Positions 40,701 through 61,100 of a stretch of 64,000 nt of DNA are shown one piece after another. A program made the position numbers and the translations under genes. Source of the stretch: Asticcacaulis sp. MM231 (lineage in GTDB: Bacteria > Pseudomonadota > Alphaproteobacteria > Caulobacterales > Caulobacteraceae). Numbering within the stretch: position 1 is the first letter of the stretch; each line of letters begins with the position of its first letter. Location of the stretch: contig NZ_OZ075109.1 of assembly GCF_964186625.1 (NCBI RefSeq), forward strand, positions 186,001 through 250,000. Reading direction: 5' to 3'. The notes beneath the pieces were generated by a model that was not told the DNA's origin, did no database searches, and saw nothing but the letters and a program-made list of their open reading frames with translations.

Positions 40701-41321
40701 TCAGCCAGCCGGCGGTCGACGCCACTGTGCAGACATCAGATCGGAAATGGTTGGATCGGAACGCTCTTTCAAGCCTGCAATGATGCGTTCGCGGTCGCCT
40801 TCAGGGTGTGTCTGGCTTAATTTGGTCGTACCTTCGAGGCTGTCGACATGGACGCGGAAGGAGCGGATCTTAGGGAGTAAGAACGCCACGCGACCTTCGG
40901 GCGCCATATCGATCGTCCAGGGTGCACTGAACGCGTTCTCAGCTATGTCAATGGTACGGCGCAACACGTCTGTTTGACCCGCCTCATCGTCGATGACCTC
41001 CAGCGTGCCGCGTACATGGGCAGCGACATAGTTCCAGGTCGGCACTTCTGGCTTTTCCACATACCAGCGCGGCGAGATATAGGCGTGCGGCCCTGCGAAG
41101 ATCGCCAGCGCCCTGTCGCCGGTGCGCATCGTCTTCGCTTGCGGGTTTCGTGCCGCCATATGCCCGATAAGAGTTGTCTGACTGTCATCCGTCTCGAAAA
41201 CGATGGCAGTGGTCGTGGCCGACATATCGGCCAGGATCAGGGTTGCGAAGGGATAGTCACGCACAATGGCAGCCGGATCAGAGGCGATATAAGGCTCGGC
41301 ACGGAAGAGGGTAGGGCTCAT
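40701..41321 (-). CDS. PaiB-like FMN-binding split-barrel protein, first copy
   Basis: The start at 41321 is chosen for AGGAA 6 bases upstream. The 206-residue protein has the family pattern LIGHMAARNPQAKTM, then GPHAYISPRWYVEKPEVPTW followed by NYVAAHV. PaiB-type proteins bind flavin and were first named as negative regulators of protease and sporulation genes; in proteobacteria their job is uncertain. A paralogue lies at 56329. It is divergent from the NylC-like gene. Confidence 0.85.
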   Translation of the reverse strand: MSPTLFRAEPYIASDPAAIVRDYPFATLILADMSATTTAIVFETDDSQTTLIGHMAARNPQAKTMRTGDRALAIFAGPHAYISPRWYVEKPEVPTWNYVAAHVRGTLEVIDDEAGQTDVLRRTIDIAENAFSAPWTIDMAPEGRVAFLLPKIRSFRVHVDSLEGTTKLSQTHPEGDRERIIAGLKERSDPTISDLMSAQWRRPPAG

Positions 41322-41661
41322 CGGAATTCCTGAAAGTGTGTCGGTCATGCCTGTGTTCTGAAAACACATCATAAGACCTGCCTACATAACCCTCATAATG
41401 CTGCAAGACACCGACAAAATGCGGATCGGGTGGTGAGCCTGTGTCACCGTCACCTCCGGCCTTTGCATCCTGACAGTTACAAAGCCTTGTTCTAGCTTGG
41501 ATTCATCCACCACAGGGCTGGACGCATAAGGTGTGTAGCCGCAAGTAGAGTCAGTTCCTTCACCTTGTGGTGACTTTTGCGCACCACGCACGACATTTTT
41601 TGCAATGCGGCATAATCTGATGCTGGCCCACTATTGCTTCACTTCACGAGGATACAACCCC
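41322..41661. other. Divergent promoter region before the NylC-like gene
   Basis: It should contain promoters for the PaiB-like gene (minus) and the NylC-like gene (plus). No clear operator palindrome was picked out. Confidence 0.4.
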
Positions 41662-43062
41662 ATGCCCAGGTCCTTCCTGTCTCTTGCCCTTACTCTGTTT
41701 TTGGCGCCGGCGCTTTACGCAAGCCCGGGGTTCGCTCAAGTGCCGGCGCCGACTCCACCCGATAGTCAGGCTGATCTCAAGCCTGTCATCAATTTTGGTG
41801 GCAAGGAGCTGAAGTTTGACTGGCCGATGCTGAAGATAGGCACGGGTGAGTACAGCGAAGGGCCGACCGGCGTGACGGTCTTCAGTTTCGATAAAAAGGT
41901 CATGGCAGCGGTGGATGTACGCGGTGGCGCGCCTGCCACCGTCAATACCGACCTGGCGCGACTGGGCTATCCGACCTCGGATTTTGACGCCGTGGTTTTT
42001 GCTGGTGGTTCGGCCTATGGACTGGAAACCACGACGGCTGTGGCCAGCGCGCTAAAGGATGATGGCAAAAATACCGGCAACTGGGATTCCATCGCGGTCG
42101 CCCTGGGCGCTATCATTTTCGACTATGGCGACCGCCGCCTCAATGAAATTTATCCCGACAAGCGGTTGGCTCAGGCCGCCTATCGCGCCGCTCAGCCGGG
42201 TGTCTTCCGAAACGGCGCCGCCGGGGCCGGACGCATGACCATGTCAGGATACTTCTTCGGCTGCAAGGCGCATTCCGGGCAGGGCGGTGCCTTCCGCCAA
42301 ATCGGCGACCTGAAGATCGCGGTCTTCACCGTGGCCAACCCCTACGGTGTGGTCGTCAACCGCGATGGCAAACTGGCCGCCTGTTACAATGATGCCGGCT
42401 GGCCGGCCAATATTACCGTCAATGACCTGATGCACAACCTGCCGGAAAGCCGCAAGGCCGGATGGGCCACGCCCAGCGGGCCGATGCATAACACCACGAT
42501 CAGCCTTGTGGTCGTCAACCAGAAGATGGACGCCGCGGAACTTCAGCGCCTGGCGATCCAGGTTCATACCTCCATGGCGCGTGGTATCCAGCCTTTCTCG
42601 ACAATGAATGACGGCGATGCGCTTTACGCCGTATCCACGGGCGAGATTGAGGCTGAGAAGGGTATCGTCGACAGCACCGAAATCGGCGCCATCGCGTCCG
42701 ACCTGATGTGGGACGCCATCCTCAATTCGGTGCCCGCGCAGGACCCGCTGCCCGTCATCACAGCGCAGCCGGCCATCCCAGTCAAAGCTCTGGCGGGCTA
42801 TGCGGGCGAGTACCGGTTTTCGAACTTCGTCACCGTCACGGTCAGTGAAAAGGACGGCAAGCTCTATGGCCGTGCGACCGGTGCGCGCAAAGCTTTCAAC
42901 GTGCCGCTTGATCAGACGGTCGAGCTGTTACCGGTCGGGCCTGGCCTCTTCGCGGTGCCGGGACGCTACCCCACGGTGCTTGATTTCAACCAGTCAGGTA
43001 CGCTTGTCATGAACCCTGGCCTTTGGAAGCAGACCGGTCTCTGGCAGAAGGCGAAAAAATAA
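41662..43062 (+). CDS. Secreted NylC-like S58/P1 N-terminal-nucleophile amidase
   Basis: ATG 41662 is used because it begins a signal peptide (MPRSFLSLALTLFLAPALYA, cleavage near GFAQ). The 466-residue precursor matches the DmpA/BapA/NylC family. The autocleavage site is N277/T278 in MHNTTISLVVV, and the stretch IQVHTSMARGIQPF then GDALYAVSTGEI follows, closely recalling NylC, the 6-aminohexanoate-oligomer endohydrolase that cleaves at Asn-Thr. AAGAG, QGGAFRQIGD and NPYGVVVNRDG also fit. The C-terminal 90 residues (AGYAGEYRFSNFVTVTVSEK...) add a DUF3471-like beta domain absent from NylC. It probably hydrolyses amide bonds of omega- or beta-amino-acid oligomers in the periplasm. A general beta-aminopeptidase is the main alternative. 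Confidence 0.85.
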   Translation: MPRSFLSLALTLFLAPALYASPGFAQVPAPTPPDSQADLKPVINFGGKELKFDWPMLKIGTGEYSEGPTGVTVFSFDKKVMAAVDVRGGAPATVNTDLARLGYPTSDFDAVVFAGGSAYGLETTTAVASALKDDGKNTGNWDSIAVALGAIIFDYGDRRLNEIYPDKRLAQAAYRAAQPGVFRNGAAGAGRMTMSGYFFGCKAHSGQGGAFRQIGDLKIAVFTVANPYGVVVNRDGKLAACYNDAGWPANITVNDLMHNLPESRKAGWATPSGPMHNTTISLVVVNQKMDAAELQRLAIQVHTSMARGIQPFSTMNDGDALYAVSTGEIEAEKGIVDSTEIGAIASDLMWDAILNSVPAQDPLPVITAQPAIPVKALAGYAGEYRFSNFVTVTVSEKDGKLYGRATGARKAFNVPLDQTVELLPVGPGLFAVPGRYPTVLDFNQSGTLVMNPGLWKQTGLWQKAKK

Positions 43063-43068
43063 CCGCTT

Positions 43069-43089
43069 GCGGTGCGTTGTGCGCACCGC
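43069..43089. other. Hairpin after the NylC-like gene
   Basis: GCGGTGCG, loop TTGTG, CGCACCGC, 6 bp past the stop. There is no T-run, so it may stabilise mRNA or give partial termination. Confidence 0.45.
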
Positions 43090-43177
43090 TCCGAACCGGC
43101 TACGCGCCTAGTCACAGGACCGTCACAAAAACAATCTGATGCCGTGGATACCCACACACACGAAGGGGATAACAACA

Positions 43178-45340
43178 ATGACATCGAGATTTTTCAAAGC
43201 AACGAAAGGGAGCGTATCGGTACACGCGCTTCTGTCCGTCATGGTGGCGGGGGGGCTGCTCAGCAGCGTCGCCGTCACGGCCCATGCCCAGACCGAGGAA
43301 GCCGCTGCTCACGTGGCGGACAAGACGAACGACGTCATCGAGGTGGTGGTGACGTCACAGAAGCGCCGCCAGCGTCAGATCGACGTGCCGGTCGCGGTCA
43401 ATGTGCTCAGCGCCGAGACCCTGGAAAAGCGCAATATCCAGACGGTTCAGGATCTGTCCTTCTCGGTGCCAGGTTTGATCCTGCGGTATGACGGTCCCGG
43501 TTCTTCGCAGATCTTCCTGCGCGGCGCCACCAACATCCGCGGGTCTGACGCCCTGGTCTCATCCTATATGGACGATACGCCGGTGACGCTGACCGGTGGC
43601 TTCCGTCAGGTCGACCTGCGTGCCCTTGATCTGGACCGTGTTGAGGTGCTGAAAGGACCACAGGGCACGCTTTATGGCCAGGGTGCCATGGCGGGTACGG
43701 TGCGCTTTATTACACGCAATCCCAGTCTCTATACTGTGGACGGCTTCATCAGGGCCGATATCTCGTCGATCGACGAGGGTGATACCAATTCCAAGGTGTC
43801 CGGCGCGGTCAGCCTGCCCCTCATCAAGGGCACACTGGGCCTGCGCCTGGCGGGCGCCTATGAATCCGGCGGGGGGTGGATCGACCAGCCCGGACTCGGT
43901 ATCAAGGACGGTAACAACCAGGACATCTACAATCTGCGAGCCAAGCTGTTGTGGAAGCCGACAGATGATTTCGACATGACGTTTACGGCCACCACCTATT
44001 CGATGAAGAGCCGGTTCGGCCTCGACTACGAAAACCCGGACCGCACCCGCCCCGTTCCGGTAAGTCCGGATTACGACCTTTTGCCGTCGCGCCATGACCG
44101 CTCGCAAATCCTCAACGTCACGGCCAACTACAAGACCGGCATAGGCCGCCTGACCAGTTCAACCAGCTTTGTCGAACTCGACCGCAACTATGCCACAACC
44201 TACATCGCCGGACCCAAGACGACATCCGCCGGTATTCAGAACGAAGGCTTCGACGGCATCAGCGATCGCGCCCAGCAGTTTACGCAGGAAATCCGACTGA
44301 CCTCTGAGGGCAGCGGTCCGTGGCAATATACGATCGGGGCCTTTTACAAGGATGCCCAGGGCAATCTCGATGATAAGGGCGTTTCCTACTATGCCGGCGG
44401 CACCTATCCCTTCACCTATCGCAAGTACGATACGTCCAGGTCGATCTCGGCCTTTGCCGATATTGGCTACAAGATCACCGACAAGCTCCTGATCGGCGCC
44501 GGTATTCGGTCCTTCAAGGATGATCAGACCGCCACGGACCTGGCCGGCACAGAGCAGAAAGCGACGTTCGACTCGATCGATCCGCGCGTCTATGTAACCT
44601 ACGCCCTGACACCGAAATGGAATCTCTACGGCAATATCTCCAAAGGCTTCCGCTCGGGCGGTTTCAACAGCGCAGGCCTGCCAGCCTATGATCCAGAAAA
44701 GCTCATGAATTACGAACTGGGCACCAAGGGGATTGTGGCTGACGGCAAGGTACGCTTCGATATCGCAGCCTATTACAGCAAGTACGACGATGCCTTGCGC
44801 ACCGGGCAGTTCTTCAACTTTCCGGCCGGTTATGTCAGCTATACCCGTAACATCGGTGAGATGGAAATTAAGGGACTGGAAGGCACAATCGACTGGCGCG
44901 TGACTCCGGCCCTGACCCTGTCGGCCAATGCCGCCTATATCGACGGTGAAGTCACCAAGCTCAATCTCGGCGCTGGAGAGACGACCAACTTCCAGGTCGG
45001 TGATGGTCTTGACTATGCACCGAAGTTCTCCTCCACCATCGCGGCGGATTACAGCTTCAACTGGGCCACCAACGTGCCGGGCTTCGTCCATGTCGATTAC
45101 GTCTATCGCGACAAGACCTACGCCACCGACAACTCGATCCTTATCCCCCGTACCCAGTCGTCCGACCGCATCAACCTGCTCAATGCCCGCGTAGGCGTCA
45201 CTTGGTCGGAGATCACGGCGGAACTCTACGTCACCAACCTGACGAACGAGAACCTTTTGGTCGATCCTTATGACGCCTGGCAACAGTCGTCGCGGACCAA
45301 GCCACGCACCGTGGGTGTCAGCCTGTCGCGTAATTTCTGA
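43178..45340 (+). CDS. TonB-dependent outer-membrane receptor (omega-amide cluster)
   Basis: The start is ATG 43178 (AAGGGGAT upstream). The 720-residue precursor has a signal peptide ending near AHAQ, a plug domain (VIEVVVTSQKRRQRQIDVPV; VLKGPQGTLYGQGAMAGTVR) and a 22-strand barrel ending in an aromatic residue (SLSRNF). It would import a large substrate using TonB energy. Lying between the NylC-like amidase and a peptide permease, it is a good candidate importer of oligo-amides. No carboxylate-sigma (STN) domain is present. Confidence 0.92.
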   Translation: MTSRFFKATKGSVSVHALLSVMVAGGLLSSVAVTAHAQTEEAAAHVADKTNDVIEVVVTSQKRRQRQIDVPVAVNVLSAETLEKRNIQTVQDLSFSVPGLILRYDGPGSSQIFLRGATNIRGSDALVSSYMDDTPVTLTGGFRQVDLRALDLDRVEVLKGPQGTLYGQGAMAGTVRFITRNPSLYTVDGFIRADISSIDEGDTNSKVSGAVSLPLIKGTLGLRLAGAYESGGGWIDQPGLGIKDGNNQDIYNLRAKLLWKPTDDFDMTFTATTYSMKSRFGLDYENPDRTRPVPVSPDYDLLPSRHDRSQILNVTANYKTGIGRLTSSTSFVELDRNYATTYIAGPKTTSAGIQNEGFDGISDRAQQFTQEIRLTSEGSGPWQYTIGAFYKDAQGNLDDKGVSYYAGGTYPFTYRKYDTSRSISAFADIGYKITDKLLIGAGIRSFKDDQTATDLAGTEQKATFDSIDPRVYVTYALTPKWNLYGNISKGFRSGGFNSAGLPAYDPEKLMNYELGTKGIVADGKVRFDIAAYYSKYDDALRTGQFFNFPAGYVSYTRNIGEMEIKGLEGTIDWRVTPALTLSANAAYIDGEVTKLNLGAGETTNFQVGDGLDYAPKFSSTIAADYSFNWATNVPGFVHVDYVYRDKTYATDNSILIPRTQSSDRINLLNARVGVTWSEITAELYVTNLTNENLLVDPYDAWQQSSRTKPRTVGVSLSRNF

Positions 45341-45350
45341 TAGACATGCC

Positions 45351-45379
45351 GGCCCGCTGCCAGATGATGGCAGCGGGCC
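45351..45379 (+). terminator. Terminator after the TonB receptor gene
   Basis: GGCCCGCTGCCA, loop GATGA, TGGCAGCGGGCC form a perfect 12-bp stem, followed by ATGTTATTTT. It may attenuate transcription between the receptor and the permease. Confidence 0.75.
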
Positions 45380-45402
45380 ATGTTATTTTCCTGGAGTACC
45401 GG

Positions 45403-46740
45403 ATGAGCAAAGACGATTTTATGGGCCACCCCAAAGGCCTGGCCTATATCGCCTTTACGGAAGCGTGGGAGCGGTTTTCCTTCTACGGGATGCAGGCGTT
45501 GTTGATGCTCTACATGACCGGTCGTCTGCTGAAGCCAGGCGTGGTGGATCAGGTCTGGGGCTTCGCACAGTTTCGCAACCTTGTTGAAAGCGTCACCGGT
45601 CCTCTGTCCGTTCAGGCTCTGGCGGCGCAGATATTCGGCATCTACGTCGCACTCGTCTATTTAGGCCCAGTTATCGGCGGTCTTGTCGGAGACCGCTGGC
45701 TTGGCCGGACGCGCGCCGTACTCACCGGCGCCGCGTTACTGGCGACCGGACACTTCCTGATGGTGTTCGAGACAGCCTTTTTGCCGGCGCTGGGGTGCAT
45801 TATATGCGGGGCAGGGTTGCTGAAAGGCAATCTGGCAGCACAGGTGGCGGCGCTCTATGCGCCTGACGATCGCCGGATCGATGACGGGTACACGCTCTAC
45901 GTCACCTCCGTCGTCGTGGGCGCTTTTCTGTCGCCGCTGGTCTGCGGCACCTTGGGGGAACTGTATGGCTGGCACTATGGCTTTGGTGCCGCCGGCCTTG
46001 GCATGCTGGTGGGTATTGCCGTATATCTGCGCGGCTTGAAGCACTTCAAGGAACCCCTGAAAGCAACCAAAGCGCAAAAGGTGTGCCTCACAGGGGCAGA
46101 GTGGGGTCGTATTGGCGTCCTGTGCGGCCTGATCCTGATCACCTCATTGTTCTGGACGGTGCAGTCGCAGATCTGGAACACCTATCCGGTGTGGCTGCGT
46201 GACGACGTTAGTCTCGGCATCGGTCTTGGCCTCAGCATTCCTGTCACGTGGTTTCAGTCGTTAGACGCCTTCGCGGTGCTGGCCCTGACGCCGGTCGTTA
46301 TGGGAATGTGGAAGGGCATGGCCAAACGGGGCATGGAGCCTTCAGACATCGTCAAGCTCGCTATGGGCTGCGCCCTGTTTGGCAGCGGCTGCGTCTTGTT
46401 GACCGTTGGCCAATGGCTGGCGGGTGCGGGCAAGGTCGCTGTGATCTGGCCTTTGCTCTTCCACTTCGTCATTGGTGCCGGGTATCTCCTGTGTTCTCCC
46501 GTGGCCCTGGCGCTTGTCGCCCGCAGCGCACCGGTACAGGTCAAATCCATGATGGTTGGCGGCTACTATATCGGCCTGTTCATCGCTGGCATCTTTTCCG
46601 GCTGGCTTGGGCGATTCTATGAACCCTTGCATCCCCCGCTGTTCTGGCTGTTACATGCCGGGATCGGGCTTGCCGGCGCCCTCATTCTGCTGGTGCTTTA
46701 CGCGCCTCTGCGTCGGATATTACTGGCGAAGCCTCAATAA
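45403..46740 (+). CDS. POT/PTR-family proton-coupled oligopeptide permease
   Basis: ATG 45403 begins a 445-residue inner-membrane protein with the PTR2 signature AWERFSFYGMQALLMLYMTG and about twelve membrane helices. The second signature region (GRTRAVLTGAALLATGHF) is also present. It should bring di- and tripeptides, or short amide oligomers, into the cytoplasm with protons. It is the inner-membrane step after the TonB receptor. It is followed 11 bp later by a LysR gene on the same strand. Confidence 0.92.
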   Translation: MSKDDFMGHPKGLAYIAFTEAWERFSFYGMQALLMLYMTGRLLKPGVVDQVWGFAQFRNLVESVTGPLSVQALAAQIFGIYVALVYLGPVIGGLVGDRWLGRTRAVLTGAALLATGHFLMVFETAFLPALGCIICGAGLLKGNLAAQVAALYAPDDRRIDDGYTLYVTSVVVGAFLSPLVCGTLGELYGWHYGFGAAGLGMLVGIAVYLRGLKHFKEPLKATKAQKVCLTGAEWGRIGVLCGLILITSLFWTVQSQIWNTYPVWLRDDVSLGIGLGLSIPVTWFQSLDAFAVLALTPVVMGMWKGMAKRGMEPSDIVKLAMGCALFGSGCVLLTVGQWLAGAGKVAVIWPLLFHFVIGAGYLLCSPVALALVARSAPVQVKSMMVGGYYIGLFIAGIFSGWLGRFYEPLHPPLFWLLHAGIGLAGALILLVLYAPLRRILLAKPQ

Positions 46741-46751
46741 AGGAGTACCCG

Positions 46752-47741
46752 ATGGATACGCATGAAGAGGATCGCGCCGCCGCCTATAATCCGCCGTCGC
46801 GCAAGACCATTCCGCCGTTCGAGGCCTTGCGCGCTTTCGACGCTGTCGCGCGCCTGGGGGGGGTGCGCCAGGCGGCCCGAAGCCTCGGCCGCGACCATGC
46901 GGTGATTAGCCGCCACCTCAAGACCCTGGAGCAGTGGACCGGCGCGAAACTGGTCGAGCGTACGGCGCGCGGCGTCGTTCTTACCGAAGACGCCCGACGC
47001 TACCACAAGGACATCGCCAGCGCTATGGACGCCATAGCGGCGTCAACGATCGACCTGATGCGGCGCGGCTATCACAACCATCTCAACATTGCCTGCTCAC
47101 CGGGCTTTGCGCTGCACTGGATGTCGCGTCGTGTCGGCATGTTCGAAAAGCTGCATCCCGATGTCGATATTGAACTGCGCTCCATGGATCGCAATGCCAT
47201 GACGGGGCTGAACGAGGCCGATATCGAGATCCGCTTTGTTCCGGCCTATCGCGTGGCCCTCAAGCTGCCGGCGGAGATGAAAGCGCAGGAGGTGGCCAGT
47301 GTGGCTGTCATGGCTGTGGCATCACCGGACTATCTTGCCCAGGCCGGGCCGATCGAGACACCGCGCGACCTGATCCATCAACGCATGCTACACGAAATGG
47401 ATTTCGACAGCTGGGCGCACTGGCTGGCGGCGCATGGCGTCTATGATGAGCTTGACCTGACCGGGCCACGCCTGTGGCAGGGCCACCTGACGCTCGATGC
47501 CGCTTTGCACGGGCGCGGCGTGGCATTGGTCAATGCGCTGGTCGGGCAAGCCTTCTTTAAATCGGGCCAACTGGTCGAGATCGGTCGCGGCAATCCGGCC
47601 TTCCGGCCCTATACAGAAGGCAAGTATCTGATCATCGGCCGCGCCGACCGGTGGGAAACGCCTATGATCCGCCGCTACCGCCGCTGGCTTATGGACGAAC
47701 TGAACAAGGAACTGGCGACCTTCCGCCGGCCAGCGGCGTAA
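46752..47741 (+). CDS. LysR-family regulator (GcvA-like)
   Basis: AAAGGAG lies 6 bases before ATG 46752. The 329-residue protein has the LysR HTH (LRAFDAVARLGGVRQAARSL, DHAVISRHLKTLEQWTGAKL) and an effector-binding domain of the GcvA type. It sits inside the catabolic cluster between the permease and the serine hydrolase, so it probably activates these genes in response to an oligomer or amino-acid inducer. No T-N11-A operator was pinned down. Confidence 0.9.
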   Translation: MDTHEEDRAAAYNPPSRKTIPPFEALRAFDAVARLGGVRQAARSLGRDHAVISRHLKTLEQWTGAKLVERTARGVVLTEDARRYHKDIASAMDAIAASTIDLMRRGYHNHLNIACSPGFALHWMSRRVGMFEKLHPDVDIELRSMDRNAMTGLNEADIEIRFVPAYRVALKLPAEMKAQEVASVAVMAVASPDYLAQAGPIETPRDLIHQRMLHEMDFDSWAHWLAAHGVYDELDLTGPRLWQGHLTLDAALHGRGVALVNALVGQAFFKSGQLVEIGRGNPAFRPYTEGKYLIIGRADRWETPMIRRYRRWLMDELNKELATFRRPAA

Positions 47742-47896
47742 AGGTTCCTGTTCTGCTTTAAGCTATTGCATTCTAAGTCGTATTTTCCGTCGTGGTGTTG
47801 TGGGCGCACCGCCTTCTCAACGGTTCGCACCTTCGCCCGCAGGGGGTAAAAGAGTAGGTCTTAAGCGTCAATCTTGCTGTATTAAGGGGAACGCTT

Positions 47897-49088
47897 TTGT
47901 CAAGTTTACAAGCGCCGGGAATGCCGGCGATGGTCTCCCCGATTGAAGAGGGCTTTGCCGACGTCGAAGTCGGCGACATGACCGAGCTCTATGCCGGCCA
48001 GCTCATGCCTGATTTCCAGGCGCACACCCTGAAAAATACCCATCGCGCTTTCGCCACGCGGATCATCCGTCGCGGTGGACCGGTGGCTCCGCTGGCCTAC
48101 GCCAGCACAACGCTCGATGATTTTCCGATTCACGCTGACGGCCAGATTTACGATCTCTACGACTATGTCTCGCGCAATCGTGTGGCAGGTCTGCTGATCA
48201 TGAAGAACGGCGAGATTGTGCACGAGCGCTATGAGCTGGGCAATGCACCCTCCGAGCACTGGGTGTCGATGTCGATGGCCAAGTCGGTCGCTACCACGCT
48301 TGTTGGGTGCGCTATCCGTGATGGTTATATCAAAAGCGTCGAAGAGCCGCTCACGGCATACCTGCCCCAGTTGATTGGGTCGGGGTATGACGGCGTCTCC
48401 ATCCGTCAGTTGATGCAAATGACGTCCGGCATCAAATGGGACGACACGCAGGTCAATCCAGCCTCCGAACGGCGCCGGATGTTGGCGCTTCAGGTGGCGC
48501 AAAAGCCCGGTGAGATCATGCGCTTCATGGCTTCTCTGCCACGCATCGCCGAACCGGGCACTGTCTGGAACTATTCGACCGGCGAGACTCTATGTGGTCG
48601 GCGCGCTCGTCAAGGCGGCAACGGGCAAGTGGCTGTCGGATTATCTGTCCGCGCGTATCTGGTCACGACTGGGCATGGAGGCGGACGCCTACTGGTGGCT
48701 TGAAGCGCCGGGTGGTCTTGAAGTCGCCGGCTCCGGGTTGTGCGCGCCGTTGCGAGACTATGCGCGGTTCGGCCGCTTTATTATGAAGGGCGGCGTCATC
48801 GACGGCGAGTTGGTCCTGCCGGGCAACTGGATGGCGGAGGCCGGCGTATCACGCACGGTCGGCGGCGCGAGGCTCGATTACGGTTACATGTGGTGGACCG
48901 TGCCGGATCGGAGTGGTTCGCTGGCTGACGGCGCTTATGCCGCGCGCGGTATCTTCGGCCAATACATGTATCTCAATCCGGCGCAGGACGTGCTGATCGC
49001 CGTCCTTAGTTCCCGTGCCAAGCCGCGCGGCGCCGAGGCCATTCTCGATAATGATTTCTTCAATTCCACGGTGGAGGCGCTGCGCTAA
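47897..49088 (+). pseudogene. NylB-like serine hydrolase (beta-lactamase fold), frameshifted
   Basis: A TTG start at 47897 follows AAGGGGA by 6 bases (ATG 47921 is an alternative). The catalytic Ser-x-x-Lys lies in S126-MAK-129 and the second motif is in WNYSTGET. An extra C at 48590 then shifts the frame. The other frame resumes YVVGALVKAATGKWLSDYLS and runs to TAA 49086-49088. Removing that base gives 396 residues, close to the 392 of NylB (6-aminohexanoate-dimer hydrolase), whose family this resembles; a D-aminopeptidase or esterase is possible. No signal peptide is seen. As written it loses the C-terminal third and should be inactive. Confidence 0.8.
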
Positions 49089-50476
49089 TGGATACCTGGC
49101 CCCAAAATGACCCGGTGCGCAGCACCGCCGCCTGGCAGGCCGCTGATCAAGCGCATCACCTGCACTCCTTCACCGATCCAGCGGTCATCCGCGACAAAGG
49201 CTCACGCATCATCACGGCCGGTGAGGGGTGCCACGTCATCGACAGCGATGGCCGCCATATCCTCGATGGCATGGCGGGCCTGTGGTGCGTCAATATCGGC
49301 TATGGCCGCGTCGAACTGGCCGATGCCGCCCACGCTCAGATGACGGCCTTGCCCTATTATAACAACCATTTCCAAAGCGCCACGCCGGCCATGATCGAAC
49401 TGGCCGAGACGCTTGCCGAACTGACGCCTCACGGGATCAACCACTTCACGTTCGCCAATTCCGGATCGGAGGCCAACGAGGTCATCATCCGCCTGGCGCG
49501 CTATTACTGGCAATTAAAGGGCCAGGCGCAGAAACGAAAGATCATCAGCCGCACCCTGGCCTATCATGGATCTACCGTGGCGACCTCAAGTCTCGGTGGT
49601 ATGCCGGCCATGCACGCCAATGATGGCGGTGTGATGCCAGAGATCACCCATATCGAGCACCCGCACTGGTATGTAAATGGCGCAGACCTGACCCCGGCGC
49701 AATATGGCCTTAAAGCCGCCCAGGCACTGGAGGCCCGCATTCTTGAACTGGGGTCTGACACCGTGGCCGCCTTTATCGGCGAACCCGTACAAGGCGCGGG
49801 CGGCGTGATCGTTCCGCCCGACACCTACTGGCCGGAAATTCAGCGCATCTGCAAAAAGTACGACGTACTGTTAATCGCCGACGAGGTTATTTGCGGATTT
49901 GGACGTACCGGTTCGTGGTTCGGATCAAATACCTTCGACATCGCGCCGGATCTTATGCCGATGGCCAAGGGACTGTCGTCGGGTTACATCCCCGTTGCGG
50001 CGGTCGGTGTCCATGATCGCATCTTCGATGTTATCGAGCGTGGCGGGCTATGGCCGCACGGCTATACCTATTCCGGGCATCCGGTTGCCTGTGCCGTCGC
50101 CCTGGCCAACATCGCTGTCATCAAACGCGAAGGTTTGGTCGAGCGTGTCCGTGATGATATCGGACCCTATTTCCAGTCCAGACTGGAAGACCTGGCGCAA
50201 CGTCATCCGCTGGTCGGTGAACGGCGCGGCGTCGGTCTGATGGCCGCCCTGCAACTGGTGCGCAACAAAGACACCCGCGAGATCTGCACGCCGCAGGACA
50301 ACGCTGCCATCTTCTGCCGCGAGGTTTGCTACGAAAACCGGTTGATCGCCCGCGCTGTCGGGCAATCCATGGTGATGAGTCCGCCGCTGACAATCAGCCA
50401 TGCCGAAGTCGATGAAATGGTCGCCATTCTCGCCCGCGCTCTGGATGCGACGGCGCGAAAACTTGGATATATCTGA
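49088..50476 (+). CDS. Class III omega-aminotransferase (NylD/beta-alanine-pyruvate type)
   Basis: This 462-residue PLP enzyme starts within the previous stop (TAATG). It has the PLP-lysine K294 in MAKGLSSGYIP, the ring-nitrogen Asp265 in LLIADEV, GSEANE for phosphate contacts and AYHGST. It fits omega-amino-acid:pyruvate transaminases, which turn GABA, beta-alanine or 6-aminohexanoate into the semialdehyde. Its position next to a NylB-like hydrolase and a semialdehyde dehydrogenase matches the nylon-monomer pathway order (NylD). Putrescine or taurine is an alternative substrate. Confidence 0.9.
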   Translation: MDTWPQNDPVRSTAAWQAADQAHHLHSFTDPAVIRDKGSRIITAGEGCHVIDSDGRHILDGMAGLWCVNIGYGRVELADAAHAQMTALPYYNNHFQSATPAMIELAETLAELTPHGINHFTFANSGSEANEVIIRLARYYWQLKGQAQKRKIISRTLAYHGSTVATSSLGGMPAMHANDGGVMPEITHIEHPHWYVNGADLTPAQYGLKAAQALEARILELGSDTVAAFIGEPVQGAGGVIVPPDTYWPEIQRICKKYDVLLIADEVICGFGRTGSWFGSNTFDIAPDLMPMAKGLSSGYIPVAAVGVHDRIFDVIERGGLWPHGYTYSGHPVACAVALANIAVIKREGLVERVRDDIGPYFQSRLEDLAQRHPLVGERRGVGLMAALQLVRNKDTREICTPQDNAAIFCREVCYENRLIARAVGQSMVMSPPLTISHAEVDEMVAILARALDATARKLGYI

Positions 50477-50477
50477 T

Positions 50478-51953
50478 ATGCCTGATGTTCATAATCTCTC
50501 CTCTGCCGGCGTCAAACTGCTGTTCGAGACGAAAGCATTCGCCGAAGATTTAGGCCTCCGTAACCGCTCGTCGGGCACCTTCGCGGTGACCAATCCGGCC
50601 GATGGACGTCATATCGCCGACGTACCCGATATGGGCGCGGCGGAAACAGAAGCGGCGGTGGGCGCAGCAAAGGCGGCCTTTGTCGACTGGTCTGCACTGC
50701 CGGCGCGAACTCGCGCCGACACCCTGCGTCGTTGGTACGAGCTCATTCTGCAAAATAAGGATGCCCTGGCCGAACTTCTTACCCTGGAACAGGGAAAGCC
50801 GCTGGCAGAGGCTCTGGGTGAGATCGTCTTCGGTGCGCAGTTCATCGAATGGTTCGCCGAGGAGGGTAAACGCCTGTATGGCGACATCATACCCAGCCAC
50901 GCCGCCGACAAGCGCTGCCTTGTGCTCAAACAGCCGATCGGCGTGGTGGGCGCCATCACGCCGTGGAATTTCCCCAGCTCGATGATTACCCGCAAGGTAT
51001 CGCCAGCCCTGGCGGCCGGCTGCACCATCATTATCAAGCCAGCTGAGGATACGCCGTTGTCAGCCCTGGCCTTGCAGATGCTGGCCGACGCCGCGGGTTT
51101 TCCGCGGGGCGTCATGACGGTCATTACCGCCAGGCGTGCCGAAGCCGTGGCGGGTGTGCTGACCACACATCCAGATGTGCGCAAGATATCCTTCACCGGC
51201 TCGACCCGTGTCGGCAAGCTCCTGATGCAGCAATGCGCGGGCACGGTAAAGAAGCTGTCGCTCGAACTAGGCGGTAACTCACCCTTCATCGTGTTTGATG
51301 ATGCCGATCTTGATGCGGCTGTGGCCGGCGCCATCATCACGAAGTTTCGCAATGCCGGTCAGGCCTGCGTCGCCACCAACCGCATCTACGTCCAGTCGGG
51401 TGTCATGGCGGAGTTTGCGGCGCGCCTGAAAGCTGCCATTGCCGGGCTTCAGGTCGGACCGGGGCTGCAGGCCGGAACGCGCATTGGGCCTCTGATCAAC
51501 CCGGCGGCCGTCGAAAAGGTCGAAGGGCTGGTGAAGGACGCGGTCGAGAAGGGCGCCTATCTGGCCCTTGGCGGGGGCTTGCACGAACGCGGCGGCCAGT
51601 ATTTCACCCCGACCCTGCTGACCGGCGCCACCCATGACATGGACATCGCCCACACTGAAATCTTCGGGCCGGTGGCGGCGCTCTTTCCCTTTGAGACCGA
51701 AGCCGAAGTCATCGCCCTAGCCAATGATACGCCTTATGGCCTGGCGGCCTACTACTGGACCCGTGACATCGGTCGCGTTTTCCGCGTCGGCGAGGCGCTG
51801 GACTATGGTCTGCTCGGCGCCAATGAAGTCCTGACGTCCAACCCGGCCACGCCCTTCGGTGGCATGAAGGAATTGGGCCTGGGGCGCGAGGGTTCCAAGT
51901 ACGGCCTCGAAGATTTTGTCGAGATCAAATACCTGGCGCTCGGCGGCATTTAA
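50478..51953 (+). CDS. Succinate/adipate-semialdehyde dehydrogenase (GabD/NylE type)
   Basis: ATG 50478 follows the transaminase stop by one base; the frame from 50400 is too long. The 491-residue ALDH has the NAD-binding PWNFP motif, the general base in LELGGNSPF and the catalytic Cys in GQACVATNR (usually GQTCVCANR; the second Cys is Ala here). It oxidises the semialdehyde from the transaminase to a dicarboxylate. Length and ends fit GabD. The exact chain length of the substrate cannot be read. Confidence 0.9.
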   Translation: MPDVHNLSSAGVKLLFETKAFAEDLGLRNRSSGTFAVTNPADGRHIADVPDMGAAETEAAVGAAKAAFVDWSALPARTRADTLRRWYELILQNKDALAELLTLEQGKPLAEALGEIVFGAQFIEWFAEEGKRLYGDIIPSHAADKRCLVLKQPIGVVGAITPWNFPSSMITRKVSPALAAGCTIIIKPAEDTPLSALALQMLADAAGFPRGVMTVITARRAEAVAGVLTTHPDVRKISFTGSTRVGKLLMQQCAGTVKKLSLELGGNSPFIVFDDADLDAAVAGAIITKFRNAGQACVATNRIYVQSGVMAEFAARLKAAIAGLQVGPGLQAGTRIGPLINPAAVEKVEGLVKDAVEKGAYLALGGGLHERGGQYFTPTLLTGATHDMDIAHTEIFGPVAALFPFETEAEVIALANDTPYGLAAYYWTRDIGRVFRVGEALDYGLLGANEVLTSNPATPFGGMKELGLGREGSKYGLEDFVEIKYLALGGI

Positions 51954-51978
51954 TTCTCTTACCCACGGACACTTGAAA

Positions 51979-52350
51979 ATGAAAAAAACTCCGATCAATC
52001 CCAGCGGGACGGGGTGGGCTCAGGCCTGCGCCGTCGATCAGGCGGAACGCCTCGTGTTTATCGCCGGACAGGTGCCACAAGACAAGGATGGCGTCATCCC
52101 GGCCGACATCAGCGATCAGTGCCGGCTGGCGTGGGGCAATGTCGTCCATCAACTGGAGACCGCCGGACTCCAGCTGGAGAACCTGGTCAGTGTGCGCGTC
52201 TATCTGACAGACCGACAGTACATTCCCGAAATGGTGGCCGTGCGCAACGAGGTGCTGGGCCTGCGTGCCGAACCCGCCTTCACCGTCGTGCTGGCGGGTC
52301 TTTACGACGCGCGCTGGTGCATCGAAATCGAATCCGTCGCAGCCGCTTAA
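51979..52350 (+). CDS. RidA/YjgF-family enamine/imine deaminase
   Basis: ATG 51979 begins a 123-residue trimeric-type protein with FIAGQVPQDKDG, LVSVRVYLTD and EPAFTVVLAGL, all RidA landmarks. The usual Arg is preserved in SVRVYL. It clears reactive 2-aminoacrylate-type enamines formed by PLP enzymes, which suits a cluster with two transaminases. It is co-directional, 25 bp after the dehydrogenase. Confidence 0.9.
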   Translation: MKKTPINPSGTGWAQACAVDQAERLVFIAGQVPQDKDGVIPADISDQCRLAWGNVVHQLETAGLQLENLVSVRVYLTDRQYIPEMVAVRNEVLGLRAEPAFTVVLAGLYDARWCIEIESVAAA

Positions 52351-52365
52351 GAAAAGGAAGTTTTC

Positions 52366-53619
52366 ATGTCCACCAATGCCGAACTTTATGCCCGCCGGGT
52401 CGCCGCCATTCCAAAAGGCGTGGTCAACGGTTTGCAGGTTTTCGCCGCGCGCGCTGAAAATGCCGAAATATGGGATATCGAAGGCCGCCGTTATATCGAC
52501 TTCGCTGCCGGTATTGCCGTTTGCAACACGGGCCATCGCCATCCGAAGGTGGTCGCGGCCGTCGAAGCGCAGTTGAAGACCTTCAGTCACACGGCTTTCC
52601 AGGTCATGCCCTATGAAGGCTATATCACCCTGGCCGAACGCCTGAATGCCCTCGCGCCCATCAGTTCTTCCGCCAAGACCATCTTTTTCAATACAGGTGC
52701 CGAAGCCGTCGAAAACGCAGTGAAAATCGCGCGCGCCGCGACGGGGCGTACGGGCATCATCGCCTTCTCAGGCGCTTTTCACGGCCGCACCCTCATGACC
52801 ACCGCCTTGACCGGTAAGGTGGCGCCTTACAAAAAACTGTTCGGCACGCTGCCGGGCGAGATTTGGCGTGTGCCGTTCCCGGTTGAGTCCTATGGCGTAA
52901 GCGTCGAGGACAGCCTCAAGATGCTTGACAGTATACTGCGTACCGATGCCGATCCGGACCAGGTGGCGGCGATCATTATCGAGCCGGTGCAAGGCGAGGG
53001 CGGTTTTCATATCGCACCAGCGGCGTTGCTGCAGGCCTTGCGTAAAGTCTGCGATACCCACGGCATCCTGCTGATCGCCGACGAGGTTCAGACCGGGTTT
53101 GGGCGTACCGGTAAGATGTTTGCCATTCAGCACAGCGGTGTCGAGCCTGATTTAGTGACAATGGCAAAGGCGCTCGGCGGCGGCTTCCCGATTTCGGGGG
53201 TGGTCGGCCGGGCGGAGATCATGGATGTAATCGATGGCGGCGGTCTGGGTTCGACGTTCGGTGGGGCGCCTTTGAGTTGTGCCGCGGCTCTGGCGGTGCT
53301 CGATGTCATCGAAGACGAAAATCTTGTGGCTCGCGCGCAGGCCATTGGGGAACGTATGCGCTATCGTTTCGTTCAGTGGTCGCAACGCAACGATCTGCTG
53401 CCGGTGACGAATGTCCGCGGTCTGGGCGCCATGAATGCCTTCAGCCTGCCAGATGCGGATGCTGTAAAAGCCGTTATCGGAAAGGCGTTCGCGGGCGGTC
53501 TGATCCAGATCTCTTGCGGCGTTTTCGGAGAAGCCCTGCGCTTTTTGCCCGCGCTCACCATATCGGACACCCTGATTGACGAGGGGCTGGACATACTCGA
53601 AGGCGCGCTGGCCAAATGA
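52366..53619 (+). CDS. gabT: 4-aminobutyrate aminotransferase (GabT type)
   Basis: A 417-residue class III PLP enzyme with K268 (VTMAKALGGGFP), D239 (LLIADEVQTGFG) and the GabT-specific FNTGAEAVENAVKIAR. It transaminates GABA, and often 5-aminovalerate, to the semialdehyde with 2-oxoglutarate. It is a second omega-transaminase in the same operon and overlaps the next gene by 4 nt (ATGA). The gene symbol follows family resemblance; specificity may differ. Confidence 0.88.
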   Translation: MSTNAELYARRVAAIPKGVVNGLQVFAARAENAEIWDIEGRRYIDFAAGIAVCNTGHRHPKVVAAVEAQLKTFSHTAFQVMPYEGYITLAERLNALAPISSSAKTIFFNTGAEAVENAVKIARAATGRTGIIAFSGAFHGRTLMTTALTGKVAPYKKLFGTLPGEIWRVPFPVESYGVSVEDSLKMLDSILRTDADPDQVAAIIIEPVQGEGGFHIAPAALLQALRKVCDTHGILLIADEVQTGFGRTGKMFAIQHSGVEPDLVTMAKALGGGFPISGVVGRAEIMDVIDGGGLGSTFGGAPLSCAAALAVLDVIEDENLVARAQAIGERMRYRFVQWSQRNDLLPVTNVRGLGAMNAFSLPDADAVKAVIGKAFAGGLIQISCGVFGEALRFLPALTISDTLIDEGLDILEGALAK

Positions 53620-54524
53620 AAGAACGGATCGCCATTATCGGCTGCGGCTTGATTGGTGATAGCTGGGCCGCCCTGATGACTGCCTTTGGCCATGACGTGA
53701 CCGCATGGGACCCGTCTCCACGCATGACGGCCGATTTCGAGACGCGTGTAGACAAGGCGAGAAAGCAGGTCTGGCAGGTGATGCCGGGCGCGCGCCCCGC
53801 CACCGGCAACCTGACACTTGCGGCCACTCTGGAAGAGGCGTTGGCCAACGTAACATGGGTCCAGGAGAATGCGCCCGAACAGCTGGGACTCAAGCAGGAG
53901 CTCTATGCACAGATCGAGACTTACGTGAGCGATAGGGTTATTGTCGCCAGCAGCACGTCGTCGCTGACCTGGTCGGAATTGTCCATCGGCATGCGCCATC
54001 CCCATCGCCTGATCACGGCCCATCCGTTTAATCCGCCGCACCTGATGCGTCTGGTCGAAATCTATGCTGCGCAAGATGATATGCGTGCCCGCAGTGTTGC
54101 TTTTTACGCGGGGCTAGATCGCAGACCAGTCGTGTTACACCGTGACGCTGTCGGCCACATCGCCAATCGGCTGGCCTCTGCTTTGTGGCGAGAGGCGGTC
54201 AACATCGTTGCCGAGGACATTGCAGACGTCAGCGCGGTGGATGCCGCTTTAGTACATGGACCAGGCTTGCGCTGGTCGGTGATGGGCGCTCATATGGCCT
54301 ATCATCTCGGCGGCGGGGAAGGTGGCATGGCAGCCTACCTGAAGCATCTCGGTCCGAGCCAGGAGCGCCGGTGGCAGACGCTGGGTTCACCAAAATTGAC
54401 GCCGGAGGTCTGCGAAAAACTCATTGACGGTGTCGCCGTCGAGGCCGCAGGACGGTCCATAGCAAGCCTGGCCCTTGAACGTGATGACGCTCTGATCCGC
54501 GCGCTGCGGGCCAAAACGCAATGA
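53616..54524 (+). CDS. 3-hydroxyacyl-CoA / L-carnitine dehydrogenase-type oxidoreductase
   Basis: This 302-residue enzyme has an N-terminal NAD fold (ERIAIIGCGLIGDSWAALMT) and the carnitine-dehydrogenase-like HPFNPPHLMRLVEI and GPGLRWSVMGAHMAYHLGGG motifs. The catalytic His is in HPFNPP. It would oxidise a 3-hydroxy acid or 3-hydroxyacyl-CoA. In this context it may act on a hydroxylated omega-amino acid or in beta-oxidation of the dicarboxylate; the motif set leans to carnitine dehydrogenase. It is translationally coupled to gabT. Confidence 0.8.
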   Translation: MKERIAIIGCGLIGDSWAALMTAFGHDVTAWDPSPRMTADFETRVDKARKQVWQVMPGARPATGNLTLAATLEEALANVTWVQENAPEQLGLKQELYAQIETYVSDRVIVASSTSSLTWSELSIGMRHPHRLITAHPFNPPHLMRLVEIYAAQDDMRARSVAFYAGLDRRPVVLHRDAVGHIANRLASALWREAVNIVAEDIADVSAVDAALVHGPGLRWSVMGAHMAYHLGGGEGGMAAYLKHLGPSQERRWQTLGSPKLTPEVCEKLIDGVAVEAAGRSIASLALERDDALIRALRAKTQ

Positions 54525-55198
54525 CAGAACCAGTTCGTATTGCCTTGATTCACGCACTTGAAGAGTTTGTCATGCCAATCCGCGAGGCTTTCTCGAAACT
54601 TTGGCCGGAAGCTTATGCCTTCGATGTGCTTGATACATCTCTGGCTACGGACCTGGCAAACAGCGGAAGCCTGGATGACGCCATGATGGCACGCTTCCAG
54701 ACCTTGGCCGAATATGCCTTGGCCAGCGAAGGAAAGGGCGGTCGCACCCAGGGCATTCTGTTTACCTGCTCTGCCTTTGGGCAGGCCATCGAGGCGGTCA
54801 AGGCGCGTCATCCGGTTCCGATATTGCGGCCAAATGAAGCGGCTTTTGAAACAGCCCTGGGGGTGGCCAGTCGCATAGGCCTCGTCGTGACTTTTGAACC
54901 GTCTCTGAGCGCTTTGAAGCAGGAGTTGAGCGTCATGGCCGCTGCCCGCGGCAAGGCAATCGAAATCCAGGCCGTACTTGCCGAAGGTGCGCTTGCGGCG
55001 CTCAAACGTGGCGATGGTGATCGTCATGATCAACTGGTTGCTGATCGCGCGGCGAAGCTGGGCGATGTTGAGGTCATCGTGCTGGGGCAATTTTCACTCG
55101 CGCGTGCACGTCAGGCTGTCGAACGTGCTACGGGACGCCACGTCATCACCACACCTGAAAGCGCTGCGTTGGCGATGAAGGGTAAGATCGACGTCTAA
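54521..55198 (+). CDS. Asp/Glu racemase-superfamily protein lacking the second cysteine
   Basis: A 225-residue protein coupled to the previous gene (4-nt overlap). The first catalytic Cys is in ILFTCSAFGQAI, but the position of the second, normally in a VLAC-type strand, reads IVLGQFSLARA. With one Cys a two-base racemase mechanism is unlikely; a decarboxylase or isomerase-like reaction, or a binding role, is possible. It is the last gene of the operon. Confidence 0.7.
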   Translation: MTEPVRIALIHALEEFVMPIREAFSKLWPEAYAFDVLDTSLATDLANSGSLDDAMMARFQTLAEYALASEGKGGRTQGILFTCSAFGQAIEAVKARHPVPILRPNEAAFETALGVASRIGLVVTFEPSLSALKQELSVMAAARGKAIEIQAVLAEGALAALKRGDGDRHDQLVADRAAKLGDVEVIVLGQFSLARARQAVERATGRHVITTPESAALAMKGKIDV

Positions 55199-56946: not shown

Positions 56947-56947
56947 A

Positions 56948-61074: not shown

Positions 61075-61100
61075 AAGCGGATATGAGCAGGAGCGCGGGC

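What the first reader, a model, noticed from the sequence alone, without database searches (positions are those of the whole stretch)
41662..55198. Nylon-oligomer-like omega-amino-acid degradation island
A NylC-like amidase with the Asn-Thr autocleavage site, a TonB receptor, a POT permease, a LysR regulator, a NylB-like SxxK hydrolase, a class III omega-transaminase (NylD role), a semialdehyde dehydrogenase (NylE role), RidA, GabT, a hydroxyacyl/carnitine dehydrogenase and a racemase-like protein lie nearly end to end on one strand. Classic nyl genes are known from plasmids of nylon-waste bacteria. Here the same enzyme set is combined with dedicated outer- and inner-membrane uptake, as if a natural omega-amide oligomer is the real substrate.
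Basis: partly seen in the sequence, partly recalled or inferred. Interest (0 to 1): 0.9.

Follow-up and report, generated by a model that had tools for sequence, protein, structure and literature searches.

The report
Natural nylon-oligomer-type amide degradation operon
A bacterium of the genus Asticcacaulis carries a conserved set of genes that looks built to import short amide chains made of small amino-acid units and burn them to succinate, using a cousin of the enzyme that breaks nylon fragments.

Summary
In detail: eleven genes lie end to end on the + strand (41662-55198) of an Asticcacaulis contig. The first enzyme groups with NylC (39% identity; a 100/100 branch parts both from ten other Caulobacteraceae S58 enzymes) and keeps Asn-Thr but not NylC's Lys189. 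The NylB-like gene is frameshifted and nearer to PIB-1 than to NylB. GabT and, narrowly, the dehydrogenase pass GABA-pathway cut-offs. The core order recurs in five other Asticcacaulis genomes and, rearranged, in one genome of another class, so this is no chance cluster or recent nylon adaptation. New here: a palindrome GGTG-N9-CACC (it contains T-N11-A, the LysR-box form) sits in three control gaps of all six Asticcacaulis operons, against 1 copy in 400 kb sampled elsewhere in this genome; a hairpin lies between receptor and permease genes in all six. Best reading: a LysR-controlled natural operon for omega-amino amides, probably with C4 units (outer-membrane import, periplasmic NylC-type cleavage, POT uptake, cytosolic cleavage, transamination, oxidation to succinate). 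Substrate and regulator pairing are inferred. Dedicated uptake is not new in itself: classic nyl loci have Opp genes near nylB and nylC.

The parts
40704..41372 (-). PaiB-like protein (PF04299, putative FMN-binding), divergent from the operon; a relative lies near NylC in all six Asticcacaulis loci, and a PF04299-type gene near NylC in G838 and Nonomuraea
41432..41448 (.). operator-like palindrome GGTG-N9-CACC, copy 1, in the divergent control gap
41567..41587 (.). operator-like palindrome GTGGTG-N9-CACCAC, copy 2, about 75 bases before the NylC-like start; equivalent core copy in 6 of 6 Asticcacaulis operons
41662..43062 (+). NylC-like Ntn hydrolase (S58) with N-terminal signal-peptide-like segment (by eye) and a weak C-terminal DUF3471 match; predicted Asn-Thr self-cleavage at 42490-42495
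43071..43087 (.). operator-like palindrome, copy 3, in the NylC/TonB-receptor gap; same gap in 6 of 6 operons
43178..45340 (+). TonB-dependent outer-membrane receptor (start chosen; frame opens at 43139)
45351..45379 (+). strong intercistronic hairpin between receptor and permease genes (window z -7.2; z -4.7 to -5.4 in the five other operons)
45403..46740 (+). POT-family (peptide/H+ symporter) inner-membrane permease; TIGR00924 217 bits, cut-off 130; start placed by comparison with AC466
46752..47741 (+). LysR-type regulator, GcvA-like; 94.5% identical in AC466; likely binder of the palindromes (inference)
47794..47810 (.). operator-like palindrome, copy 4, in the LysR/NylB-like gap; same gap in 6 of 6 operons
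47930..49088 (+). NylB/PIB-1-type serine hydrolase (PF00144, SxxK at 48272-48283), broken by a frameshift at about 48590; one frame in 6 of 6 relatives examined
49088..50476 (+). class III omega-transaminase, PRK07480 (polyamine/amine:pyruvate) type
50478..51953 (+). succinate-semialdehyde-type dehydrogenase (TIGR01780, 648 bits, cut-off 646; start chosen)
51916..52350 (+). RidA-family protein (start uncertain); no counterpart found in AC466 or G006
52366..53619 (+). GabT-type 4-aminobutyrate transaminase (TIGR00700, 536 bits, cut-off 507)
53616..54524 (+). 3-hydroxyacyl-dehydrogenase-family protein (lambda-crystallin/carnitine-dehydrogenase-like); also in AC466, not found behind GabT in G060, G068 and G006 (G075 and G153 not examined there)
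54521..55198 (+). Asp/Glu racemase-superfamily protein, paired with the preceding gene also in AC466 and on a Pseudosulfitobacter plasmid

Best explanation
A natural, LysR-controlled operon for using short omega-amino-acid amides, most likely with C4 (gamma-aminobutyryl or 4-aminobutyl) units. Proposed steps: the TonB receptor imports oligomers across the outer membrane; the secreted NylC-like enzyme self-cleaves at Asn-Thr and cuts oligomers in the periplasm; the POT permease takes up the short pieces; the NylB/PIB-1-type hydrolase finishes them in the cytosol (broken in this strain); the two class III transaminases, helped by RidA, remove amino groups; the SSADH-type dehydrogenase gives succinate. 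The LysR protein, sensing a product, acts at GGTG-N9-CACC sites in the control gaps, and the hairpin after the receptor gene sets different levels of surface and cytosolic parts. Shown by sequence: gene families, NylC kinship, conserved order, palindromes, hairpin, purifying selection. Inferred: locations, substrate, regulator-operator pairing, role of the hairpin, reaction order.
For: NylC 190 bits in the PDB against 58 for ThnT; a profile of relatives gives NylC 257, Nyl12 249, then 125 and less; tree: secreted clade sister to the NylC clade, 100/100 against ten other Caulobacteraceae S58 enzymes. Order NylC-TonBR-POT-LysR-NylB-TA-SSADH-GabT in 6 Asticcacaulis genomes including the window, the same 6 of 25 in the genus that have this NylC; rearranged set with PaiB-like gene, LysR, NylC, TonBR, aldehyde dehydrogenase, AptA-type omega-transaminase, NylB and POT in G838. 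Listed NylC and NylB relatives share 10 identical longest-contig lengths (50 x 49 lengths of 10 kb or more; 0.03 by the offset control), among them entries named Sphingomonas, Flavisphingomonas, Phenylobacterium and Pseudoxanthomonas. GabT and SSADH pass GABA-pathway cut-offs, also in G060. Palindromes in 3 of 3 gaps in 6 of 6 operons, 1 copy in 400 kb of background. dN/dS 0.02-0.10.
Against: No activity, expression or binding data. NylC's presumed catalytic Lys189 is not kept. The NylB-like protein is nearer to PIB-1. The omega-transaminase is nearer to polyamine/amine transaminases. In G838 there is no second transaminase and no RidA match, and the dehydrogenase fails the SSADH cut-off (355 against 646), so the C4 pointer does not hold there. 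G006 lacks receptor and permease next to NylC, and G041, G918, G915, G532 and the Sinorhizobium plasmid have the NylC relative without this cluster. The genome has another GabT above cut-off and an SSADH just under it elsewhere, so GABA catabolism does not depend on this operon. The window's SSADH passes its cut-off by only 2 bits. The motif was chosen after seeing one of its sites.
Confidence: 0.5

Rival explanations
1. A polyamine-amide operon: the NylC-like and NylB-like hydrolases free putrescine from N-acyl-putrescines or related amides, and the amine:pyruvate transaminase, the dehydrogenase and GabT run the putrescine-to-GABA-to-succinate route.
For: Transaminase with putrescine and polyamine:pyruvate enzymes among its best solved relatives; two transaminases plus a dehydrogenase is the make-up of that route (recalled); PaiB-like gene near NylC in several lineages (PaiB's link to polyamines is recalled).
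Against: G838 has an AptA-type omega-aminotransferase instead (599 bits, cut-off 500). A POT peptide permease suggests peptide-like pieces rather than free amines.
Confidence: 0.2
2. A C6 (nylon-6 type) oligomer pathway, natural or recruited for nylon waste: 6-aminohexanoate oligomers to adipate.
For: NylC kinship. In Pseudomonas jessenii a GabD-like enzyme is induced by caprolactam and proposed for 6-oxohexanoate (PMC6061476 passages); the Arthrobacter NylD is of GABA/5-aminovalerate transaminase type (PMC7019077 passage).
Against: Conserved order in six genomes of the genus and purifying selection argue against recent assembly; GabT and SSADH pass GABA cut-offs; no adipate-activating gene among the frames scanned, though an acyl-CoA dehydrogenase gene follows GabT in G060.
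Confidence: 0.12
3. A general scavenging operon for ordinary or beta-peptides: the hydrolases are aminopeptidases and the rest serves amino-acid nitrogen.
For: POT permeases carry peptides (family knowledge); Pfam files the enzyme with S58 peptidases, and a solved 'L-aminopeptidase/D-esterase' matches weakly (66 bits); the AC466 copy of the NylB-like protein is 69% identical to one in Sphingosinicella xenopeptidilytica, a beta-peptide degrader (recalled).
Against: The enzyme falls with NylC; two omega-transaminases and SSADH are not needed for alpha-amino acids.
Confidence: 0.13

Closest known systems
nyl loci of Arthrobacter KI72 and Agromyces (nylB and nylC with opp genes; NylD and NylE elsewhere in KI72)
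   Same: NylC-clade hydrolase, a beta-lactamase-fold hydrolase, a peptide importer nearby, and the transaminase and semialdehyde-dehydrogenase roles
   Different: TonB receptor plus POT instead of Opp; secreted NylC with a C-terminal extension; catabolic genes in the same operon; LysR gene and palindromes; hydrolase nearer to PIB-1 than NylB; no NylA gene seen
PIB-1 (8rlj), class C beta-lactamase-like hydrolase of Pseudomonas aeruginosa
   Same: closest solved relative of both NylB-like pieces (174 and 132 bits)
   Different: here inside an amide-catabolic operon; activity untested
Polyamide-4 degraders (Nyl4Apx of Pseudoxanthomonas, Nyl4Apa of Pseudoalteromonas)
   Same: SxxK hydrolases that make GABA oligomers of 2-4 and 2-3 units (PMC13269358); a Pseudoxanthomonas MAG has NylC and NylB relatives on contigs of the same length (28155)
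   Different: those are large secreted enzymes with binding domains; no NylC-type operon appears in the parts read
DmpA and BapA aminopeptidases
   Same: same Pfam family S58 (recalled for DmpA/BapA)
   Different: no chain named DmpA or BapA matched the profile at E<=10; the one with a similar name (9yys, L-aminopeptidase/D-esterase) scores 85 bits against 257 for NylC
Caprolactam pathway of Pseudomonas jessenii
   Same: omega-transaminase and GabD-type dehydrogenase genes side by side
   Different: caprolactamase as entry step, no NylC (PMC6061476 passages)

Membership tests
NylC (6-aminohexanoate-oligomer endohydrolase) | Asn266/Thr267 self-cleavage site and Asn219 | tested here: met
   Asn-Thr invariant in 19 rows
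NylC (6-aminohexanoate-oligomer endohydrolase) | Lys189 (presumed catalytic, PMC6021441 passage) | tested here: not met
   Tyr in the window, variable in the secreted clade; Lys kept in the two Variovorax and the Nonomuraea sequences
NylC (6-aminohexanoate-oligomer endohydrolase) | groups with NylC rather than other S58 | tested here: met
   (DmpA/BapA themselves were not in the tree)
NylC (6-aminohexanoate-oligomer endohydrolase) | hydrolyses 6-aminohexanoate oligomers | not testable with these tools
   needs purified protein
NylB (6-aminohexanoate-dimer hydrolase) | PF00144 family with SxxK | tested here: met
   invariant in 14 relatives
NylB (6-aminohexanoate-dimer hydrolase) | NylB as nearest characterised relative | tested here: not met
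   PIB-1 174/132 bits; NylB 61/39 bits
DmpA/BapA aminopeptidases | sequence match to DmpA/BapA structures | tested here: inconclusive
   none of that name at E<=10, one 'L-aminopeptidase/D-esterase' at 85 bits; that DmpA and BapA entries are in the library is assumed
GABA catabolism (GabT, SSADH) | curated model cut-offs | tested here: met
   TIGR00700 536>507; TIGR01780 648>646
Carnitine 3-dehydrogenase | curated model cut-offs | tested here: not met
   227<592; 219<414
LysR-box operator | T-N11-A inside a palindrome near the target genes | tested here: met
   GGTG-N9-CACC contains T-N11-A (that this is the LysR-box form is recalled)
LysR-box operator | bound by the operon's LysR protein | not testable with these tools
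   needs a binding assay

The most novel reading that the evidence does not exclude
This is one of the natural systems behind the nylon-oligomer enzymes: a dedicated locus, found in more than one class of Pseudomonadota, for an unrecognised natural oligo-omega-amide, built like a polysaccharide utilisation locus (outer-membrane importer, periplasmic endo-hydrolase, inner permease, cytosolic hydrolase, catabolism) and switched by one palindromic LysR operator; its substrate would tell what NylC-type enzymes were for before nylon.
Probability: 0.4. Interest if true: 0.8.

Novelty: new variant of a known kind. Interest (0 to 1): 0.62.

Why it matters
[quoted passage not shown] A conserved operon with a sister clade of NylC gives a handle on the natural substrate of this enzyme group, many relatives to assay (1476 proteins at E<=1e-20 among 8000 candidates scored, 120 of them listed), and a regulator with candidate operator sites that could report the inducer directly.

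Tried and rejected
Rejected: chance cluster; recent nylon adaptation (same calls); 'carnitine dehydrogenase' by name; Asp306/Asp308 as a NylC-specific mark, because 10 of 11 other Caulobacteraceae S58 rows have both. The eleventh row, L019, was evidently read on the wrong strand and was dropped from the tree.

Led nowhere: the 8 listed plasmid relatives of the TonB receptor are at most 33.8% identical. More distant NylB-like genes (about 35-53% in the tblastn pieces) were not in such clusters in the six loci looked at (G379, G359, G231, Paracoccus, Loktanella, Niveispirillum; Loktanella by its gene table only); two of them, G359 and G231, do have an aldehyde dehydrogenase gene 37% like the window's some 2 kb away, and G379 a LysR gene (30%). 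Rfam gave no match at gathering scores in 38000-60000. Sigma-70 and terminator consensus hits were about as many as in shuffles (4 against 5.5; 14 against 12.3). No covariation is claimed for the hairpin: the two groups of sequences do not align in one register. A 790-residue PF00144 protein elsewhere in the genome was looked at as a possible Nyl4A; no Nyl4A sequence was at hand, so nothing follows. Literature: ten searches of an open-access library; NylC with Asticcacaulis gave 0 papers, and I saw no description of this operon; subscription papers and preprints were not searched.
Full report
WHERE IT LIES. The window is part of a 618,632-base contig (C2) of a 4.65-Mb, three-contig genome. I therefore call the host Asticcacaulis.

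THE GENES. ORF listing and Pfam/NCBIfam scans give, all on the + strand: NylC-like S58 hydrolase 41662-43062; TonB-dependent receptor 43178-45340; POT permease 45403-46740; LysR regulator (GcvA-like) 46752-47741; NylB-like PF00144 hydrolase in two pieces, 47930-48586 and 48603-49088; class III transaminase 49088-50476; SSADH-type dehydrogenase 50478-51953; RidA 51916-52350; GabT 52366-53619; 3-hydroxyacyl-dehydrogenase-family protein 53616-54524; Asp/Glu-racemase-superfamily protein 54521-55198. A PaiB-like (PF04299) gene runs the other way at 40704-41372. Several start codons were chosen by me, some by comparison with relatives.

THE NYLC-LIKE ENZYME. By phmmer its best solved relatives are NylC entries (190 bits) and Nyl12 (180); then come a nylon-6,6 hydrolase (89), an L-aminopeptidase/D-esterase (66) and ThnT (58). 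A profile of 19 relatives gives NylC 257, Nyl12 249, the nylon-6,6 hydrolase 125, ThnT 90 and the L-aminopeptidase/D-esterase 85; no chain named DmpA or BapA appears even at E<=10. In an ML tree of 26 sequences the secreted group (12 rows) and the NylC group (NylC, Nonomuraea, two Variovorax) lie on one side of a 100/100 branch against ten other Caulobacteraceae S58 enzymes; the secreted group is held together at 95/96. DmpA and BapA were not in that tree. Identity to NylC is 39% over 320 columns. NylC's Asn219, Asn266, Thr267, Asp306 and Asp308 are matched; Lys189, named as presumed catalytic in PMC6021441 (passages), is Tyr here and variable in the secreted group. Asp306/308 are shared with the other S58 enzymes and so do not discriminate. 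The protein has an N-terminal hydrophobic segment (read as a signal peptide by eye) and a DUF3471 match below the Pfam cut-off (24.5 against 29.3 bits). A protein search scored 8000 candidates and found 1476 at E<=1e-20; the 120 listed are 431-486 residues long except one of 754, and those with names come from Pseudomonadota such as Asticcacaulis, Sphingomonas, Steroidobacter, Pseudoxanthomonas, Inquilinus, Microbulbifer and Phenylobacterium.

THE NYLB-LIKE ENZYME. The gene is broken by a frameshift near 48590 in the window; in six of six relatives examined it is one frame. Its pieces match PIB-1 (8rlj; 174 and 132 bits) far better than NylB (61 and 39 bits); 8rlj was identified as PIB-1 from the reference list of PMC13269358. 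It is thus a beta-lactamase-fold hydrolase of the NylB/PIB-1 kind and not a member of NylB proper. Both pieces show purifying selection against AC466 (dN/dS 0.07 and 0.04), so the break is recent or a sequencing error; a TonB receptor 10 kb downstream is split too, which keeps the error option open.

THE CATABOLIC GENES. GabT passes the GABA-transaminase cut-off (536 against 507) and the dehydrogenase passes the SSADH cut-off narrowly (648 against 646); in G060 both pass as well (537; 673). The other transaminase is of PRK07480 type, with putrescine and polyamine:pyruvate transaminases among its best solved relatives. The genome has one other GabT above cut-off and one SSADH just under it (635). 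The carnitine label for 53616-54524 fails its cut-offs. This gene and the racemase-like gene also form a pair beside malonyl-CoA decarboxylase and synthase on a Pseudosulfitobacter plasmid, so they look like a module of their own. They are present in the window and AC466 and were not found behind GabT in G060, G068 and G006; for G075 the contig ends there and for G153 that stretch was not fetched. Three racemase relatives share a longest-contig length with a NylC relative. In four Asticcacaulis loci (G075, G060, G068, G153) a further class III transaminase lies before NylC; in G060, the only one examined, an APH-family kinase gene goes with it and an acyl-CoA dehydrogenase gene follows GabT. 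Such additions could serve hydroxylated omega-amino acids, but that is a guess.

CONSERVATION. In 199 genomes of the family, 96 have an S58 match at E<=1e-20, but only 8, the window's included, are at least 57% identical. Of the 7 others, five Asticcacaulis genomes have the core in the same order (AC466=G119, G075, G060, G068, G153; RidA missing in AC466); G006, of another genus, has NylC, part of LysR, NylB, transaminase, SSADH and GabT on a 14-kb contig, without receptor or permease between NylC and LysR; G041 has NylC with none of the others nearby. In the genus, 6 of 25 genomes have the NylC. Outside the family it is rare: 2 of 385 genomes of the class and 5 of 398 of the phylum, own genome (and in the latter G006) included, at E<=1e-100, and 1 of 246 and 1 of 248 in two further families at E<=1e-80, in each case the genome already known. 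Of four distant genomes (G918, G838, G915, G532), one, G838, has a rearranged version: PaiB-like gene, LysR, NylC, receptor, aldehyde dehydrogenase, an AptA-type omega-transaminase (599 bits, cut-off 500), NylB and POT; it has no second transaminase in the cluster, and its dehydrogenase fails the SSADH cut-off (355 against 646). In G532 and on a Sinorhizobium fredii plasmid the NylC relative instead lies near or directly behind an amidase-signature gene (PF01425), the family of NylA (recalled). In Nonomuraea a NylC with 62% identity to the classic enzyme lies in an Opp-type transporter operon with a PF04299 gene, a PF03417 protein and an aldehyde dehydrogenase. Between the best 120 relatives each of NylC and NylB, 10 pairs share exactly the same longest-contig length (50 and 49 lengths of at least 10 kb compared; 0.03 expected from offsets), which points to linkage in Sphingomonas, Flavisphingomonas, Phenylobacterium, Pseudoxanthomonas and others; the contigs themselves were not read.

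REGULATION (new here). An alignment of the regions before NylC showed a palindrome, GTGGTGACTTTTGCGCACCAC at 41567-41587. Its core, GGTG-N9-CACC, contains T-N11-A, the form of a LysR box (recalled). The window has 6 copies in 64 kb (1.3 expected; 1 of 100 shuffles reached 6): four in the operon's three control gaps, one inside the LysR gene, one at 16965. In all six Asticcacaulis operons a copy lies before NylC, in the NylC/receptor gap and in the LysR/NylB gap; four of them have two more copies just before the PaiB-like gene, in G060 within the 64-base gap between kinase and PaiB-like genes. G060 and G068 also have one inside the transaminase gene. G838 has two copies between transaminase and NylB, one before the PaiB-like gene and one inside POT; G006 has one in the NylC/LysR gap and none before NylC. 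In 20 stretches of 20 kb from elsewhere in the window's genome there is 1 copy in 400,000 bases. The site that suggested the motif is not an independent test; the others are. That LysR is the binder is inferred from its place in the operon and the shape of the site. A second element, a G+C-rich hairpin, lies between receptor and permease genes in six of six operons (z -7.2 in the window, -4.7 to -5.4 in the others; 0 of 200 shuffles as stable in each; the LysR/NylB gap as control z -0.6); it may be an attenuator, or a stabiliser of the upstream message.

HOW IT WOULD WORK. Import by the TonB receptor, cleavage in the periplasm by the NylC-like enzyme, entry of short pieces through POT, final cleavage in the cytosol, transamination, RidA clearing imines, oxidation to succinate. 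The end of the route points to C4 units in Asticcacaulis; the polyamine-type transaminase leaves room for 4-aminobutyl amides. The Arthrobacter NylD is described as a 5-aminovalerate/GABA transaminase type and opp genes lie in the region of nylB and nylC (PMC7019077 passages), and P. jessenii is proposed to use a GabD-like enzyme for 6-oxohexanoate (PMC6061476 passages), so C6 cannot be excluded from sequence. Polyamide-4 degraders release GABA oligomers of 2-4 units (PMC13269358), the kind of material such an operon could take up.

PAPERS SEEN. PMC13269358: abstract, parts 1-3 of 5, one reference passage. PMC12585639: whole short text. PMC6021441, PMC10858056, PMC6061476, PMC13343204, PMC13215870, PMC6752018, PMC7019077: passages only (PMC13343204 also the start of its abstract). 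A panel of 95 Ntn hydrolases was tested on nylon (PMC12585639); whether it held members of this clade I could not see.

VERDICT. It is a new, well-supported variant of the nyl kind of pathway with a candidate operator network; the natural substrate remains the open and now directly testable point.

Noticed in passing
41432-41448, 41567-41587, 43071-43087, 47794-47810: GGTG-N9-CACC palindromes, candidate LysR operators, in the control gaps; in six operons the three shared gaps each hold one.
   Followed up: yes
45351-45379: Strong hairpin between receptor and permease genes, also in the five related operons.
   Followed up: partly
58833-61074: A second TonB receptor gene split into two overlapping frames (58833-60422 and 60229-61074); with the NylB-like break this is a second frameshift in the region.
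   Followed up: partly
55522-63251: Next to the operon: AraC regulator, a second PF04299 protein, an amino-acid permease, the split receptor and an S9 prolyl oligopeptidase: perhaps another peptide-use cluster.
   Followed up: partly
L033 14395-17395: Sinorhizobium fredii plasmid: a secreted-type NylC relative (57%) directly after an amidase-signature gene (NylA family), with transposase genes on both sides, some 6-7 kb from panD and a D-Ala-D-Ala-ligase-like gene.
   Followed up: partly
L036 4561-17024: Nonomuraea: NylC-like gene (62% to NylC) inside an Opp-type transporter operon with a PF04299 gene, a PF03417 protein and an aldehyde dehydrogenase.
   Followed up: partly
L026 13874-16248: Kinase (APH) plus class III transaminase gene pair, matching the two halves of PRK06148, placed before NylC in G060.
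   Followed up: partly
L071 6977-8591: The dehydrogenase/racemase-like gene pair also occurs beside malonyl-CoA decarboxylase and synthase genes on a Pseudosulfitobacter plasmid.
   Followed up: partly
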